Origin: Kiritimatiellales bacterium
GTDB lineage: Bacteria > Verrucomicrobiota > Kiritimatiellia > Kiritimatiellales > Pontiellaceae
NCBI GenBank assembly: GCA_003230915.1
Contig: QIHI01000015.1
Coordinates: 1-45,078 of the forward strand
DNA length: 45,078 nt
Direction of reading: 5' to 3'
Part shown: piece after piece, positions 1 to 7,421 of the stretch
Position numbering within the stretch: the stretch's first letter is position 1
Layout: the number at the start of each line of letters is the position of its first letter
Position numbers and translations under genes: made by a program
Notes under the pieces: model-generated
Database searches by the model: none
The model's input: the letters and a program-made list of their open reading frames with translations, nothing else
What the model was told of the DNA's origin: nothing

Positions 1-421
1 CATGCCGTTCGACCAACTCATGGATGCGGTTTCCTCCGGCGAAGCCGATGCCGGGGTGGTCATCCACGAAGGCCGCTTTGTTTTTGAAGAGCAGGGGTTT
101 CAGTGTCTGGTCGACCTCGGAGACTGGTGGGAAGGCGAAACCGGCTTACCGATCCCGCTCGGTTGCATCGCCGCTAAAAAAAGCCTCGGCGCCGAGCGCA
201 TCGCCGAATTTGAAGCACGGCTAAAACAATCCATCCAAACCGCGTTCGACGATCCGGACTCCACAACCGACTATGTGCGACAACACGCGCAGGAACTCGC
301 GAGCGATGTCACCCGCGAACACATCAAAACCTACGTCAACGACTTTACCCTCGACCTCGGTACCGAAGGCCGCGCGGCCATTGACCGATTACAACAGATG
401 ATGCTAAAAATCGAGATGTAG
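1..421 (+). CDS. mqnD: 1,4-dihydroxy-6-naphthoate synthase (MqnD), C-terminal part; 5' end outside window
   Basis: ORF open to the left edge; 'GEADAGVVIHEGRFVFEEQGF...DLGDWWEGETGLPIPLGCIAAKK' is characteristic of MqnD; other futalosine-pathway genes lie downstream. Confidence 0.85.
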   Translation, partial: MPFDQLMDAVSSGEADAGVVIHEGRFVFEEQGFQCLVDLGDWWEGETGLPIPLGCIAAKKSLGAERIAEFEARLKQSIQTAFDDPDSTTDYVRQHAQELASDVTREHIKTYVNDFTLDLGTEGRAAIDRLQQMMLKIEM

Positions 422-486
422 AGTAGGAAGCGGAGGAATTGGGAAGGGAGAAAATAGTGAATCACGAAGATATTCTAACCGCCAAA

Positions 487-508
487 CATTAATTTATAGG
501 ACTGACCC
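487..508 (+). repeat. Copy 1 of RAYT-associated repeat (CATTAATTTATAGGACTGACCC)
   Basis: Identical to 6004-6025 and to the reverse complement of 4935-4956. Confidence 0.9.
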
Positions 509-599
509 TTTTGTCATTTTTCATATTTGGGTAGAGATAGCCAGTTTTTAAAAACCAGAAAATGGTATTTCACCATTTTTCACGCAAAGTTTATCCAAC

Positions 600-728
600 T
601 TAACCCGTGGTCTGAAATCCCCGAACCACTTCTGAAATTTCCAGTCCTCCGATCAAAAGTTCGTGAACGAATTCTTTGGCAAGTGGTGCGGCAGCGTCCG
701 CATGGCTAATAAAAATATCTTTTTGCAT
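600..728 (-). pseudogene. Truncated TIR-domain protein (42 aa remnant)
   Basis: Minus-strand reading from CAT at 726-728: MQKDIFISHADAAAPLAKEFVHELLIGGLEISEVVRGFQTTG*. 'DIFISHA' plus 'LAKEFVHELLIGGLEIS' resembles a TIR N-terminus; AAAAGGA upstream could be an RBS; ORF stops far short of a full domain. Confidence 0.6.
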
Positions 729-789
729 AGTGTATATTCCTTTTAATAGGGGTGATTTTATTGGGTAGATAATTCAGAAGAGGGAGTCG

Positions 790-2259
790 TTACGCTTTTG
801 ATCCTGATGGTTTATTATCGTTTCGAGCATCTATAAGATATACATACTTATCATTCGTTAATCCTAACTCTCGTAGTACACGTTGAAGTTTAACTAGCTC
901 CTCATCGGTAAAGTACATGATAACCTTAAATGAGATTTTGGCATCACTAGCCTTTTCGTAAATAGCAGTTTGATTTTCCAGATTACGCTTTAGGGCTGAG
1001 TTGCTAGCTAACTTAAATTCAACGAGCACCTTGTCCTTTGCTCCGTTGGTGATTTTAAAGTCTACAGGCCCCCTTCCGTCATCGGCTTCGCGTGTAATGT
1101 CAGAACTCGCTTCAACCCATGTAAGCCTAAATGCGATTTGAAGATCAGACTCGCGTTTAACCGGTTTCCCTTTGATGTAAAATAATTTGTGTCCGCCTTT
1201 ATTTTCGATCACATCTTTCAGGAACTCAATCCGTTTGGCTGTTTCTTCCTCTGAGTTTTGCGGTGGAATATCATAAAACTTACTCGTGGTTGATAGGAGT
1301 TGAACCAGTTTGTTTACGAGATTAATGTATACTTCATTTGAATTTCCCACCTTCAATTTGCTGTTATCAAATGCTTCTTTCCTCCCGGCCTCTTTTAGTT
1401 TGATAAAGTAATCAATTGTATCTGGGAACTGCCTAAGGGTTCTGGAAATTGCTTTTTCTCGATCTTCTTTAGTGGGTTTGTCGTCTTTGGGTAATTGGGA
1501 GTAAAAATAATCGTTAACTAATTCTCGAAGTTGCCCATTTGGAATGGCATCGGGGATGCTTTCAAATTTATTCCACAAATCCTTTTTGTTTATCCACGTA
1601 TCATCTTTTGTGAGCATGTCAATGGGAGTGAGAATGAGATGCTTTCCCTTATAAATTGGTAAAAGGTAGGACTTGGGCATCCAACGTTTAAATTGGTAAT
1701 TGAAAATTGATTTTGGGACGCTAATTGAAGAGCATTTGTCAGCAGGAATGTGCTCTTTTGCAAATGCTTCAGTATACAATAGTAGGTAATCTTTTATCAG
1801 ATTTGTCGTGAAATCGCTTATTGTATCGCGGCCAACCCGATCCTTGATAAGACATAATTTTTCAAGATGGTGACCTTTCGTAATGGTCTCCTCACCAAAT
1901 GATTTAAATATATCTTCAAATCCACTGTTTAATGCTTTCGCAAAGTTGCCAGCTAGCCCGCGACCTGAATGACCATCTATGCAAAACCCAAAACAATTTT
2001 CTTTAACTTCAGGAAAAAAATACCACGCTTGGAGCATTGCTTTGGAGACATGCCCTTCAAGCGACCTTTCTCTAAGAAATAGTAGATATTCAATGATGCC
2101 GTCATGAAGTTTTTTATAGTCCTCATTTTCACTGGCAAATAGAAGGAATGGGTCAATGAATAATGGAAGGTCGATATCTAAGGCGATGTTAAATGCGCCG
2201 TATGTAGATAGTGTTTCCTCAGGAACATTGAAGAAGTCAGTGAAATAAATATCGGCCAT
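790..2259 (-). CDS. Uncharacterised protein with C-terminal PD-(D/E)XK nuclease-like motif; putative defence-associated
   Basis: 489 aa ORF; C-terminal 'DGRGPVDFKITNGAKDKVLVEFKLASNS' fits D-x(n)-E-x-K; conserved-looking tail 'YLIDARNDNKPSGSKA'; 25 bp downstream of the helicase gene on the same strand. Confidence 0.75.
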   Translation of the reverse strand: MADIYFTDFFNVPEETLSTYGAFNIALDIDLPLFIDPFLLFASENEDYKKLHDGIIEYLLFLRERSLEGHVSKAMLQAWYFFPEVKENCFGFCIDGHSGRGLAGNFAKALNSGFEDIFKSFGEETITKGHHLEKLCLIKDRVGRDTISDFTTNLIKDYLLLYTEAFAKEHIPADKCSSISVPKSIFNYQFKRWMPKSYLLPIYKGKHLILTPIDMLTKDDTWINKKDLWNKFESIPDAIPNGQLRELVNDYFYSQLPKDDKPTKEDREKAISRTLRQFPDTIDYFIKLKEAGRKEAFDNSKLKVGNSNEVYINLVNKLVQLLSTTSKFYDIPPQNSEEETAKRIEFLKDVIENKGGHKLFYIKGKPVKRESDLQIAFRLTWVEASSDITREADDGRGPVDFKITNGAKDKVLVEFKLASNSALKRNLENQTAIYEKASDAKISFKVIMYFTDEELVKLQRVLRELGLTNDKYVYLIDARNDNKPSGSKA

Positions 2260-2284
2260 TTTAATCCTATTAATTGAATACTAC

Positions 2285-4792
2285 TTATTTCGTTATGGGT
2301 ACGCAGTATGTTGAAATGAATGATTCAGACGTGAGCCCGAGCCTGGATATTTCCTTCGCTAGGGTATTCTTATCGCTCGCTAAAAGGGGGAGCTCAACCA
2401 GTGCTTTGTAAAAGGTATTTAGGTTGCTCAGTAACATTTCAATACCTGAAGGCATGAGAACTTTAGTTTCGCTGTTATAGTGAGCGTCAGCATCAGTAAT
2501 ATTCATTTTGGAAACGGTTAAAGGGATAATCGTATAAATATCTGGATATGTTTTTTTAAACCATTCTATGCTATTGGCTAGCTGGCCAGAATCCTTTTTA
2601 TGAAGCGTATTTTCATTCTGAGTTTTGGCTTCGATCACGAATGCATAGCGTCCCCATAGCCAAAGACAGTCTGGGCCATTTCCATATTCTTTTTCCGGGC
2701 GAGATCCTGTTGCTCCCAGTGGCGTTGCTAATTCCTTAAGGCTTTCCTCAAATTGTTTAACAGTTTGGCGAAAATCAAGTTGCCTGTTTTGTTCGCTTAA
2801 AAAGGCGAGTGCTCCGGTTTGATCGACGAACTCAGACAACCATGCAAGCATCTTGTCAAGTGACTTAACTGAAAAATCATCTATTGGTTGAGGTGGTATG
2901 ATGGGGGGGCAGAATGCATCGCGATTTTTAGCGAAAGCAGTTGTCTGAATTTTAAATGATTCTGATTGTGAAGTCTCAAATGTGTATGAGGCCATTAACT
3001 GTAGATATGCGCCATAAGTTCGATCATCTAGATCACACTTATTCATCTCCGTGCTCAGAATCTTTGTTGCGAGAACAGGATTGTTTCCAATTGCTGCCAG
3101 AAATGCATTTCGTTCGGCGCTGGCCAAAATGAGATTTTCATCTATTGATTCTGATATAGTGGCTGTGCCTGATTCGCGTACCCTTTGATTATAATATTGC
3201 TTCCATCCATCATTTCTTTGTAGGCATTGGTCAATTAGACCTATCAGTGCATTTTCTGAGTTATCTTCCTTTGCTGCAAGCTTCGCTAACTCTATTGCAA
3301 GTGCTAGCTGAGCTCGGGTTTCTGGATTCATAGATTTTTGTACATTTACTTTTGCGACAAACGATGCAATTTCTCCCCCTGCCAATAAAACAACAGCATA
3401 GTCAGCATGAGAACGGACAGCTCGTCCCATTCCTTGCTCGATCCTATAAACAAGGCGATGGCAAACGCCTGAAGAGTGCGTGTTTAGACTTGTGTCGTGA
3501 GAGTCGATGATACCTTCGCCTATAGGCAATCCATCAATGACCAGAATCCGGCAAGCGTCATCAGGCAAATCGACTCCATCATATCGCTGCGTTAGGACTA
3601 CAAAGTTATTCCCAGAATTAGTATTTCTTAAGTTTTCGACAGCCTCATGTATTTCATTGGAAAGATGTACCGTTGCTCCATACTCTTCCCACTCTCTTGC
3701 CATGCGTTCACTTGGAGACAAAACGACTACATTGTTCGATTTTCTAAGGTTTGCGCATAGCTGCATTACCCATTCTCTTTTGTAGTAATCTGGATTGATC
3801 AAAGAGGGAGCAACTACCATTCTTTCGCCCATCCCTCGATCTGTTTCAGGAACGATTGCCTTTTTTGCGCCCTCTGGGGTGCAGCCTAAATCTCGAACTA
3901 AAACTGAGTCATCGGCCAGAGTTGCTGACATAAACAGTCTGTGTTTGGCAGATGTATAAGCTGAAAATTGTTCAATGGGTAAAATTTGAGGAATAATCTC
4001 AATTCCTTGAATGGAAATTACGCACCGGCACCATTTGAGTGTTTCAAGAAGGAGTGGAATTACAAATTGGTGTTCCGAGTCTTTAGCATGTTTGGCTATA
4101 ATAGGAAGAAGTTCGGCTGAAAGTGATTTCCAACTCCAAAATGGAATTTCAATTGATTGGTGAGGATTTCCTTCCCAAATTTGCACCCAAACAGCAGGTT
4201 TGTATTCTTCGCAAATGGGAGTCAGTTTTGCCAGTAACTCATTTAAGAATTCACTCATGGTAATGCGTAATGTAAAAGCCTCTCGTATTTTCTCAAGACC
4301 CGCATGGGCATCGTCCAGAACAATGGCGCAAGGGCGCAACATAACATCCTGACGGTCAAATGTGGTTTTGGCGTTGAATAATTTATCATATGTACAAATG
4401 CAAATAGCATCGGCACTCAAGCATTCATGATGAGGGTGCCTTTCTCCACCTCGATATATATGAGCAGGGATGCCTAGCTTTGACGCTTCGGTGTGAACTT
4501 GTGTGCATAGTTGTTTTGTAGGGCAGAAAAAAACAACTGGTTCTTGTTTTTCGTGCATATGAGAAGCTAGGTACAGCAAGCCAACCGTGGTCTTACCTGC
4601 TCCAGTGCTAAGCTTGAGTATTGAATCCTGCTGAGATCGCAGGTCGGTAAGCTGTTGAATTGCAGAAAGTTGACTTGGTCTCAACTCAATGTGAGATGTT
4701 TTCCGATCCAAAGTCTCAAAAAAACTGAGAATATCTGATGCGTCCGGCGCATCCTCTTTTTGTAATAATCCTGTAAAATCAATCATATGCAC
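2285..4792 (-). CDS. Superfamily 2 helicase with C-terminal PD-(D/E)XK-like nuclease domain
   Basis: Motif I LSTGAGKT, motif II LDDAH, motif III MSATL, motif VI QGMGRAVRS; C-terminal 'NGPDCLWLWGRYAFVIEAKTQ...GQLANSIEWFK' fits GPD-x(n)-EAK with downstream Q. Confidence 0.85.
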   Translation of the reverse strand: MHMIDFTGLLQKEDAPDASDILSFFETLDRKTSHIELRPSQLSAIQQLTDLRSQQDSILKLSTGAGKTTVGLLYLASHMHEKQEPVVFFCPTKQLCTQVHTEASKLGIPAHIYRGGERHPHHECLSADAICICTYDKLFNAKTTFDRQDVMLRPCAIVLDDAHAGLEKIREAFTLRITMSEFLNELLAKLTPICEEYKPAVWVQIWEGNPHQSIEIPFWSWKSLSAELLPIIAKHAKDSEHQFVIPLLLETLKWCRCVISIQGIEIIPQILPIEQFSAYTSAKHRLFMSATLADDSVLVRDLGCTPEGAKKAIVPETDRGMGERMVVAPSLINPDYYKREWVMQLCANLRKSNNVVVLSPSERMAREWEEYGATVHLSNEIHEAVENLRNTNSGNNFVVLTQRYDGVDLPDDACRILVIDGLPIGEGIIDSHDTSLNTHSSGVCHRLVYRIEQGMGRAVRSHADYAVVLLAGGEIASFVAKVNVQKSMNPETRAQLALAIELAKLAAKEDNSENALIGLIDQCLQRNDGWKQYYNQRVRESGTATISESIDENLILASAERNAFLAAIGNNPVLATKILSTEMNKCDLDDRTYGAYLQLMASYTFETSQSESFKIQTTAFAKNRDAFCPPIIPPQPIDDFSVKSLDKMLAWLSEFVDQTGALAFLSEQNRQLDFRQTVKQFEESLKELATPLGATGSRPEKEYGNGPDCLWLWGRYAFVIEAKTQNENTLHKKDSGQLANSIEWFKKTYPDIYTIIPLTVSKMNITDADAHYNSETKVLMPSGIEMLLSNLNTFYKALVELPLLASDKNTLAKEISRLGLTSESFISTYCVPITK

Positions 4793-4933
4793 ATCCCTAT
4801 ATATACTTACGATTCTCTAGATATATTTACGGAAAAGCAATCTGCGACATTAATAAATATCCCTGAGCATCGTCGCACTTATTGTAAGTAGAGTAAAAAA
4901 AGAGGGCGCTAATTTTTTCAAAAAAAGGAAAAA

Positions 4934-4956
4934 GGGGTCAGTCCTATAAATTAATG
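4934..4956 (-). repeat. Copy 3 of RAYT-associated repeat, inverted (GGGGTCAGTCCTATAAATTAATG)
   Basis: Exact reverse complement of 6004-6026 (23 bp). Confidence 0.9.
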
Positions 4957-4999
4957 ATCTACTCTTGCCCTCCCGTCACTTTTTGAGTAGGTTTTTTCT

Positions 5000-6016
5000 A
5001 TGCCAAGAAAAGCTCGAATAGAATACGTGGGAGCGGTCTACCATGTGATGTGCCGAGGAAATCATCAGCAGAAGGTTTTCCGGGATGGTCGCGATAATCG
5101 TCAGTTTCTGGATGCTTTGGGAGAGGTGTGCATACGTTGCGGTTGGGTGGTTCATGCTTATGTGCTGATGGGGAATCACTATCATCTTTTGCTGGAGACC
5201 CCGTCTGCTAATCTTGTGGTGGGTATGCAATGGCTTCAAGGCACTTATACGAAGCGATTCAATGTGCGGCACAAGGAGAGGGGGCATTTATTTCAAGGGC
5301 GTTATAAAGCTCTGCTGGTGGATGGATCAATCGGCGATTATTTTTCTACGGTGGGAAATTATATTCATCTTAATCCGGCGAGGGTGAAGGGATCTGATTT
5401 TGAACAGTTAAAGCTCGGGGAGTATGTGTGGAGCAGCTTTCCAGCCTATCTCAAGTTGGTCGAACGACCTGAGTGGCTGCATGTCGACCGCGTGCTGGGC
5501 GGGTTAGGATGGATGGATTCTCGTGAAGGTCGGACGCAGTACGGGGACTATATGGACATGCGCATGCTGGAGATGCGGCATAGTTCTGAGCCGTGGAAAA
5601 TCGATGCCCGTTGGAAAAATATTCGGCAGGGATGGTGTTTAGGGGAGGCTTCTTTTCGTGAGGAAATGTTGGAACGGCTGGATGATCGCCTGAAGGACAA
5701 GCGTAGAGAATCGTTTAGCGGTGGGGGTGTGGAGCGGCATGATGAGGTGGAGGCGGAGCGATTGGTTAAGGAGGGAATGCAGACCCTCTTTTTGACCGCC
5801 GATGATTTGGAACGGTTGATTAAAAGCGCCCCTGCCAAATATGCTATTGCCTGGCTTGTGCGCAGGAAGACCTCGGTGCGGACGCGTTGGATAAAGGATC
5901 GTTTGAACATGGGATCGGCAACTAATTTCGCCTACTATATAAACCGGATTGAATCCTCGGCTAGAGATGGGTGGGGATATGATGAATTTCAGAAGGTAAA
6001 AAACATTAATTTATAG
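5000..6016 (+). mobile_element. REP-associated tyrosine transposase (RAYT, Y1_Tnp/IS200-like HUH family)
   Basis: 'MPRKARIEYVGAVYHVMCRGN', HUH motif 'GNHYHLLLET', 'RGHLFQGRYKA', 'GNYIHLNPARVKG' with candidate catalytic Tyr; flanked by 23-bp inverted repeats. Confidence 0.95.
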
Positions 6017-6026
6017 GACTGACCCC
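6004..6026 (+). repeat. Copy 2 of RAYT-associated repeat (CATTAATTTATAGGACTGACCCC)
   Basis: Direct copy of 487-508, inverted copy of 4934-4956; contains the RAYT stop codon. Confidence 0.9.
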
Positions 6027-6041
6027 TATTGGGGCGATTAG

Positions 6042-7421
6042 ATGATTGGAATTTTATTTGCAACAGAGGTGGAGGCGCAGCCTTTTATTGATCGAGGTGT
6101 CCCAGAGGGAACCGTAGTGTCTATTTCAGGGATGGGATTGGAGGCGGCTCGCATTGCCACGGAAAAGCTGGTGAAAGAGGATAAGTGCACGACAATTATT
6201 AATGCGGGCGTGTGCGGGGCGCTGATCAATCGTCTTGAGCGGGGTGCGGTCTATCGGGTTTCAATGGTCAGCACGGAACATCTTAAGGCGGGTGTAAATG
6301 TCGGTATTGGCCTTGGGCTGAAACGACTGGTGACGGTGGACGAACCGGTTTTCGAACCGAAGCGAAGAAAGGAACTCTCCAAGTATGGCGAGCTTGTTGA
6401 TATGGAAGGCTACGCCGTCGCCCGCGTCTGCGAAACACACGATATTCCCTGCATCCTGATCAAGGGTGTGACCGACTTTGGAGATGGAGCCGGAAAAGAA
6501 GATATCCAAAAACACATTGCTCCTGTTTCCGAAACGGTGGCGGAAGCGGTTCTCCTGTGTCTAGAAAAACCAAATGAATCAAGGAATAAAGAATCGGGCT
6601 TCTGGAAAAAAATCCATTCCTTCACGAAGGTGGAGCATACGATCTTCAGCTTGCCGCTACTTTTTGCTGGAGCGTGGCTTGGGGCGGGGGGCATGCCCAC
6701 GCTTAAGGCTTTGTTGCTGATTGCGCTGGTCGGCCTTGGTGCGCGAACCTTCGGTATGGCGGTGAACCGTATTCTCGACCGGAACATCGATGCCAAAAAT
6801 CCGCGCACAAAAAATCGTGAATTAGCCTCTGGGACACTTTCCATGACGCAGGGCTACGGTGTGGCACTAGCGGGGGCGGCACTCTACTTTGTTGGCTGTG
6901 CCTTGCTGGGATCCATCGTGCTAAAAATTTCGTTAATCCCTCTTATTCCGTTGGCCCTCTATTCCTTGCTCAAGCGCTTCACTCCGCTCTGCCACTATGG
7001 AATCGGAGTGGCTCTGGCTCTCGCACCACTCGGGGCGTTCATCGCGGTCACCAATAGCGTGGCCTTTACGCCCGAGGTTGTGCTGCTGGCCCTCTTTACC
7101 TTTGGCTGGATCAGCGGGTTCGACATTATCTATGCGCTGATGGATATCGACTTTGACCGCGAAAATAAGATTTGCAGTATCCCGGCATCACTCGGTTCTT
7201 CCCGGGCGCAACTGGTGGCAGCCATAACACATCTGGTCTCGTTCGCGGCCCTAGTCCTGCTGTGGATGTCCGTCGGTAGTATGCTTTCTTTCATCGCATT
7301 GCTGGTATCTGCCACCGCATTCGGTGCGGGCTACTTGCAGAGGATACCGGTGCATGTTAGGTTTTTCCCGATCTCCGCGATCGCTGGCATTGCCGGTGCA
7401 TTGGTTGTATTGCTGGGATAG
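6042..7421 (+). CDS. Fusion: futalosine hydrolase-like nucleosidase (MqnB-like) + UbiA-family prenyltransferase (MqnP-like)
   Basis: N-terminal nucleosidase motifs 'VDMEGYAVARVCETHDIPCILIKGVTDFGDG'; C-terminal UbiA motifs 'NRILDRNIDAKNPRTKNRELASG' and 'DIIYALMDIDFDREN'; one uninterrupted ORF. Confidence 0.85.
   Translation: MIGILFATEVEAQPFIDRGVPEGTVVSISGMGLEAARIATEKLVKEDKCTTIINAGVCGALINRLERGAVYRVSMVSTEHLKAGVNVGIGLGLKRLVTVDEPVFEPKRRKELSKYGELVDMEGYAVARVCETHDIPCILIKGVTDFGDGAGKEDIQKHIAPVSETVAEAVLLCLEKPNESRNKESGFWKKIHSFTKVEHTIFSLPLLFAGAWLGAGGMPTLKALLLIALVGLGARTFGMAVNRILDRNIDAKNPRTKNRELASGTLSMTQGYGVALAGAALYFVGCALLGSIVLKISLIPLIPLALYSLLKRFTPLCHYGIGVALALAPLGAFIAVTNSVAFTPEVVLLALFTFGWISGFDIIYALMDIDFDRENKICSIPASLGSSRAQLVAAITHLVSFAALVLLWMSVGSMLSFIALLVSATAFGAGYLQRIPVHVRFFPISAIAGIAGALVVLLG

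What the first reader, a model, noticed from the sequence alone, without database searches (positions are those of the whole stretch)
484..6026. RAYT-bounded ~5.5 kb cargo island splits a menaquinone operon
Three copies of one repeat bracket the segment: + at 487-508, inverted at 4934-4956, + at 6004-6026. The RAYT gene sits between copies 3 and 2; the helicase/nuclease/TIR cargo sits between copies 1 and 3. mqnD ends at 421 and the mqnB-mqnP fusion starts at 6042, so the insert lies between two co-oriented futalosine-pathway genes, with the cargo on the opposite strand and visibly more AT-rich. RAYTs normally act on short REP/IR elements; a RAYT unit delimiting multi-gene cargo is unusual. 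Copy 1 also shares the two inner bases of copy 2 (AA before CATTAAT), so it could be the right end of a lost second RAYT, giving a composite-like arrangement; two bases is weak support.
Basis: partly seen in the sequence, partly recalled or inferred. Interest (0 to 1): 0.72.

Follow-up and report, generated by a model that had tools for sequence, protein, structure and literature searches.

The report
Defence-gene mosaic beside an old transposase
A foreign pair of likely anti-phage genes sits between two menaquinone genes beside an old transposase unit; the repeats are real, but they belong to the transposase unit rather than being the ends of the foreign DNA, and the site looks like a recurrent rearrangement hotspot.

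Summary
The three repeats are real and far beyond chance, and the mqnD to mqnB-mqnP gap is empty (about 8-120 bp) in most Pontiella-genus relatives, so DNA was inserted. The reading as a RAYT-delimited cargo island is only partly right. (1) The transposase is a TIRYT (a Y1 transposase with terminal inverted repeats), not a REP-type RAYT. Its unit is only 4934-6026. (2) Copy 1 is a stray right end whose tip faces the cargo, as does the tip of copy 2, so the cargo lies outside any correctly oriented unit. (3) Lineage-native DNA separates cargo from repeats: dispersed repeats (516-561, 593-639) on the left and a tRNA-Ser 3' flank with half a terminator (4841-4921) on the right. The foreign part is about 640-4840: a truncated TIR-domain-like ORF, a nuclease-like gene and a PDC-S28 helicase. 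(4) Two relatives carry remnants of the unit at the same site, so it predates the cargo; there the gap holds other genes (G003) or is broken apart (G008). Best explanation: an old TIRtron acts as a breakpoint hotspot, and a tRNA-Ser-flanked defence fragment was joined to it. In passing: these elements carry nested partial-end arrays that repeat a locus-specific outer flank.

The parts
2..421 (+). mqnD, 3' part (contig begins inside the gene)
   Evidence: Pfam VitK2_biosynth E 2.9e-38; 5' part on contig C70
422..486 (+). mqnD 3' flank shared with G003 and G008
   Evidence: alignment; 0 of 2000 shuffles reach the G003 score, 0.0015 of shuffles reach the G008 score
484..509 (+). copy 1: stray right-end TIR, tip facing the cargo
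   Evidence: 25/25 identical to 6001-6025; inner bases match right ends of relatives
516..561 (.). intergenic sequence also present in sister genome G008
   Evidence: 91% over 46 nt at G008:C12
593..639 (.). dispersed REP-like repeat of the lineage; cuts the TIR-domain-like ORF
   Evidence: 87-95% at four G008 loci
600..728 (-). truncated 42-aa TIR-domain-like ORF remnant (MQKDIFISHA...)
   Evidence: by inspection; no Pfam or PADLOC hit
790..2259 (-). defence-associated nuclease-like protein (PDC-M36A-like N-terminal part; PD-(D/E)XK-like C-terminal part by inspection)
   Evidence: PADLOC PDC-M36A E 2.4e-20 over aa 6-232 only; invariant D400, E414, K416 in alignment A2; plasmid relatives 41-50% identical
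2285..4792 (-). PDC-S28 DEAD/DEAH helicase, candidate anti-phage gene
   Evidence: PADLOC PDC-S28 E 3e-248; solved homologues 10uj, 9yhn, 9ykj; 240 plasmid records; absent from 42 other genomes of the order
4841..4921 (.). tRNA-Ser 3' flank ending in the first half of its terminator hairpin; no tRNA present
   Evidence: matches the flank beside tRNA-Ser(tga) in G021, G004, G003, G008 and tRNA-Ser(gct) in G010
4934..4956 (-). copy 2: left TIR of the TIRtron
   Evidence: a 92-bp partial left-end copy (1 mismatch) lies at C52
5000..6016 (+). TIRYT transposase, 338 aa, NHYH and YIHLNP motifs intact
   Evidence: Pfam Y1_Tnp E 1.9e-13; motifs invariant in alignment A3
6004..6026 (+). copy 3: right TIR, overlapping the TIRYT stop codon (KNINL*)
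   Evidence: sequence; same overlap in relatives
6042..7421 (+). mqnB-mqnP fusion
   Evidence: Pfam PNP_UDP_1 and UbiA, NCBIfam UbiA-like; 66-81% identical orthologues in most genus members

Best explanation
The segment is a mosaic, not a cargo transposon. An old TIRtron (TIRYT gene with GGGGTCAG-type terminal inverted repeats) settled between mqnD and mqnB-mqnP in the ancestor of G000, G003 and G008 (shown by shared remnants), together with a stray TIR end beside mqnD (shown in G000 and G008). The site then behaved as a breakpoint hotspot. In this genome a fragment of a horizontally acquired defence island (truncated TIR-domain ORF, nuclease, PDC-S28 helicase), still attached to a tRNA-Ser 3' flank, was joined to the left end of the TIRtron. 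The join was most likely made by recombination through a TIRtron copy that sat in a tRNA-Ser terminator, or by a one-ended TIRYT event (inferred). The TIRYT is not shown to have carried the genes. The helicase and nuclease probably act against phages or plasmids (inferred from family membership).
For: Empty site in 21 of 23 other genus genomes that have both genes on one contig, and small inserts (about 360 and 690 bp) in the other two. G003 and G008 carry a decayed TIRYT 3' end plus right TIR just before mqnB-mqnP, and G008 has a TIR about 70 bp after mqnD as in G000. The three genomes group in the mqnB-mqnP tree, weakly (0.56 and 0.79), and share the mqnD 3' flank. Neither relative has the helicase. 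G003 has instead a GATase1-like gene and NAGLU, itself an accessory gene. In G008 the two genes are apart, joined to trmO-like and mutM-like regions that lie far from the mqn locus in relatives. TIR tips face the cargo. Native strips on both sides of the cargo, one of them a tRNA-Ser 3' flank cut in mid-terminator. Cargo genes are plasmid-borne elsewhere.
Against: The reciprocal junction (the own tRNA-Ser(tga) with the other half of the terminator) was not found in the 61% of the own genome examined. The left boundary near 640 rests on short matches. All three interrupted genomes are drafts and contigs end near the site in two of them. The lineage-native strips could have travelled with the cargo from another Pontiella locus. 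The tree support is weak.
Confidence: 0.6

Rival explanations
1. Composite TIRtron transposon: two TIRYT units in the same orientation flanked the defence genes and moved as one from the left end of a first unit to the right end of the second; the first unit has since been lost except for its right end (copy 1).
For: Right-end remnant, cargo, full unit occurs here and again in G028 at another locus; in G003 a full unit and a remnant bracket other genes. A third TIR copy more than 1 kb from the gene was seen at only 4 of the 21 units with identifiable TIRs. The TIRYT catalytic motifs are intact.
Against: No left end beside mqnD. TIR tips flanking the cargo face inward. Native repeats and a tRNA-Ser flank lie between TIRs and cargo. 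Units are shared with cargo-less relatives.
Confidence: 0.15
2. The defence fragment entered the gap by its own means or by illegitimate recombination, and the TIR copies are innocent bystanders in a repeat-rich intergenic patch.
For: The gap attracts many unrelated repeats: GCAACGAAT hairpins in about ten relatives and another Y1 transposase in G027; native repeats in the window.
Against: The tRNA-Ser flank joins the TIRtron left end about 10 nt from the TIR, and both G008 breakpoints also carry TIR or TIRYT remnants, which ties the breakpoints to the TIRtron.
Confidence: 0.17
3. Assembly artefact: contigs misjoined at a TIR or at the 92-bp left-end repeat shared with contig C52.
For: Draft MAG; C52 holds a 92-bp copy of the left end with one mismatch.
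Against: The contig leaves mqnD and returns to mqnB-mqnP, its normal neighbour; a random misjoin would not. Exact shared stretches are short (66 nt from the TIR tip to the mismatch).
Confidence: 0.06

Closest known systems
TIRtron / TIRYT (Di Nocera et al. 2013, PMC3733652; largely TnpA-Y1 subclass 2.1 of Quentin et al. 2018, PMC6006769)
   Same: Long Y1 transposase with NHYH and Y[IV]HLNP, flanked by TIRs with the GGGGWSAS motif (GGGGTCAG), right TIR overlapping the gene's 3' end, TIRs also found alone or clustered
   Different: Foreign genes lie beside it; ends carry nested partial copies repeating a locus-specific outer flank, a regularity I did not find described in the two papers consulted
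REP-associated RAYT / REPtron (Nunvar et al. 2010, PMC2817692)
   Same: Y1 catalytic domain; gene flanked by inverted repeats
   Different: No hairpin and no GTAG/GTGG tag at the ends; NCBIfam RAYT model below its cut-off
tRNA-associated defence islands
   Same: Candidate anti-phage genes next to a tRNA-Ser 3' flank
   Different: The tRNA itself is absent and the flank is cut in its terminator and joined to a TIRtron
PADLOC candidate PDC-S28
   Same: Helicase matches the model over nearly its full length
   Different: Neighbour genes differ from the plasmid examples viewed

Membership tests
TIRYT / TIRtron | Y1 transposase with HUH and Y---NP motif of subclass 2.1 (NH[YF]H, Y[IV]HLNP) | tested here: met
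   NHYH at aa 59-62 and YIHLNP at 121-126, conserved in the 5 aligned members; Y1_Tnp E 1.9e-13
TIRYT / TIRtron | Flanking TIRs with GGGGWSAS | tested here: met
   GGGGTCAG tips at 4934 and 6026, inverted; inverted TIRs around the gene in 21 of 25 units examined, window included
TIRYT / TIRtron | C-terminal helix-turn-helix extension | tested here: inconclusive
   No Pfam HTH hit at E 1 in five members; long conserved C-terminal part present
REP-associated RAYT | REP hairpins tagged GTAG/GTGG flanking the gene | tested here: not met
   TIR regions do not fold better than shuffles (z 1.67, -0.60, 0.31); no match to one tagged-palindrome pattern near the gene
REP-associated RAYT | NCBIfam NF047646 cut-off | tested here: not met
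   42.4 bits against a cut-off of 80
Composite transposon carrying the cargo | Outward-facing ends enclose the cargo | tested here: not met
   Orientations +, -, +: tips of copies 1 and 2 face the cargo
Composite transposon carrying the cargo | Foreign DNA runs up to the ends | tested here: not met
   Native strips 516-561, 593-639 and 4841-4921 lie between
Composite transposon carrying the cargo | Movement of the whole unit | not testable with these tools
   No second genome with the same segment
PDC-S28 candidate defence gene | Full-length match to the model | tested here: met
   aa 3-833 on model 1-827 of 831, E 3.2e-248
PDC-M36A candidate defence gene | Full-length match to the model | tested here: not met
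   only aa 6-232 on model 8-225 of 457

The most novel reading that the evidence does not exclude
TIRYTs cut at a fixed position a few bases outside their TIR and copy one end with a variable inner break. This leaves nested arrays of partial ends and scattered solo ends such as copy 1, and these solo ends serve as breakpoints that join distant loci and trap foreign genes, here a tRNA-Ser-flanked defence fragment.
Probability: 0.25. Interest if true: 0.6.

Novelty: new member of a known kind. Interest (0 to 1): 0.4.

Why it matters
TIRtrons were described in 2013 and I found only two papers using the term TIRYT, neither with a worked-out mechanism for them. A set of related genomes in which one TIRtron site has had three different fates makes their role in genome rearrangement testable. 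The end arrays with a fixed outer flank give a concrete prediction for where the enzyme cuts. For defence biology it is a warning: flanking repeats that look like transposon ends need orientation and boundary checks before genes are called cargo.

Tried and rejected
Named organism by helicase scan of genome contigs: no hit; viral contigs: no hit; relatives were named through mqnB-mqnP. RAYT as REP transposase: rejected. Cargo pair as a conserved two-gene system: in the six plasmid neighbourhoods viewed no such pair was seen, so not supported. Solved structure for the nuclease: none convincing. Rfam element in the strips: none. Own tRNA-Ser(tga) with reciprocal junction: not found in the part of the genome examined. 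Direct repeats at the cargo edges as a target-site duplication: none evident. G008 gap as simple insertion: less likely because trmO-like and mutM-like genes lie far from the mqn locus in relatives.

Full report
Observation. The window belongs to a genus whose closest named members are Pontiella species (Kiritimatiellales), as shown by the titles of mqnB-mqnP relatives. mqnD and the mqnB-mqnP fusion are identified by Pfam and NCBIfam.

Empty site. mqnB-mqnP was found in 26 of 28 genus genomes. Of 23 other genomes with both genes on one contig, 21 have a gap of roughly 8-120 bp, G014 about 360 bp and G027 about 690 bp with another small Y1 transposase. A second collection, overlapping with the first, agrees. 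Only G000, G003 and G008 are disturbed on a larger scale.

What the transposase unit is. The protein has NHYH and YIHLNP, a length of 338 aa and inverted repeats tipped GGGGTCAG. These are the features given for TIRYTs and TIRtrons: consensus GGGGWSAS (PMC3733652), which Quentin et al. equate largely with their subclass 2.1 (PMC6006769). It fails the REP-type tests: NCBIfam RAYT score 42 against 80, no hairpins. In relatives the unit has the left TIR about 60 bp before the gene and the right TIR overlapping or just after its end. So the unit here is 4934-6026.

Orientation. TIR tips should face away from the unit. Copies 2 and 3 do so for the transposase. Copy 1 is of the right-end type (AAACATTAAT, as in the right ends of relatives) and its tip points at the cargo. 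The cargo therefore lies between the outside faces of copies 1 and 2 and is not enclosed by a correct pair.

Boundaries. Right of copy 1, 516-561 matches one G008 intergenic site at 91% and 593-639 matches four G008 sites at 87-95%. The second strip cuts the 42-aa TIR-domain-like ORF (600-728), so that gene is a remnant. Left of copy 2, 4841-4921 matches the flank immediately 3' of tRNA-Ser(tga) in four genomes and of tRNA-Ser(gct) in a fifth. The alignment shows the tRNA terminator GGGCGCTAATTTTTTCAA-TTAGCGCCC broken in its loop, where the window runs into the A-rich stretch before TIR copy 2. The foreign part is thus about 640-4840. The own tRNA-Ser(tga) was not found in the 61% of the genome that could be read, so the reciprocal junction is untested.

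Age. Before mqnB-mqnP, G003 has 50 codons of a decayed TIRYT plus a right TIR, G008 has 95 codons plus a degenerate TIR, and G000 has the full unit. After mqnD, G000 and G008 both have a TIR at about 65-70 bp, preceded by a flank that G003 shares; the bases just inside that TIR are right-type in G000 and left-type in G008, so common descent of this stray end is likely but not certain. The three genomes group together in the mqnB-mqnP tree with modest support. G003 and G008 lack the helicase. So the unit is older than the cargo.

Hotspot. In G003 the gap holds a GATase1-like gene and NAGLU, a duplicated 3' piece of mqnD and a second, full TIRtron; NAGLU has a close relative (68%) in only one other genus member. 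In G008 mqnD and mqnB-mqnP are on separate contigs next to a trmO-like and a mutM-like gene, with TIR or TIRYT remnants at both breaks; those genes are far from the mqn locus in G021 and G024. Three genomes with the unit show three different large changes; 23 without it show none.

Cargo. The helicase is PADLOC PDC-S28 over its full length with solved homologues; relatives sit on 240 plasmid records. The second protein matches PDC-M36A only in its N-terminal half and has an invariant D, E-x-K pattern in its C-terminal part, which I read as PD-(D/E)XK by inspection. Relatives lie on rhizobial, Roseomonas and Paenarthrobacter plasmids, in one case next to a methyltransferase, a helicase and a GIY-YIG nuclease. 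A defence role is inferred.

Mechanism. Shown: order, orientation, shared remnants, native strips, different contents at one site. Inferred: a defence fragment attached to a tRNA-Ser flank was joined to the TIRtron left end, by recombination between TIRtron copies or by a one-ended TIRYT event. That mqnD and mqnB-mqnP remain on either side argues for insertion here, and against a random misassembly.

End arrays. Among 62 TIRtron ends, 8 of 29 right ends and 11 of 33 left ends repeat the last 3 nt of the TIR plus their own 6-nt outer flank within 160 nt; with flanks swapped between loci the expectation is 0.0 and 0.6. Units have a fixed outer and a variable inner boundary. A 92-bp left-end copy of the window's own unit lies at C52. 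Clusters of TIRs were reported before (PMC3733652); the fixed-flank regularity I did not find there.

Noticed in passing
L044, L045, L058, L063, L069, L070, L083, L104, L105 and others (TIRtron ends): Nested partial copies of TIRtron ends, each repeating the same locus-specific outer flank; outer boundary fixed, inner boundary variable (8 of 29 right and 11 of 33 left ends; swapped-flank control 0.0 and 0.6).
   Followed up: partly
L002:620-711 (G000:C52): 92-bp left-end fragment of the window's own TIRtron, one mismatch, without the rest of the gene.
   Followed up: partly
L083:5652-9495 (G028): Another right-end TIR array, one gene, then left-end array and full TIRtron: same layout as the window at a different locus.
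   Followed up: partly
mqnD-mqnB/mqnP gap in L012, L017, L020, L023, L025, L027, L028, L030 and others: A small inverted-repeat element (GCAACGAAT or GCAACGGAT arms) sits in the gap of about ten relatives; G027 (L024) has a different short Y1 transposase with GGAGGGACG repeats there.
   Followed up: no
L038:9441-9627 (G003:C261): A roughly 180-bp element with GGCACTAAGTTAAG inverted ends lies between the right TIR of the TIRtron and a duplicated mqnD 3' fragment.
   Followed up: no
L212:138-332 (G021:C1): 3' end of a tyrosine recombinase resembling integron integrases lies next to tRNA-Ser(tga), whose 3' flank matches 4841-4921 of the window.
   Followed up: no
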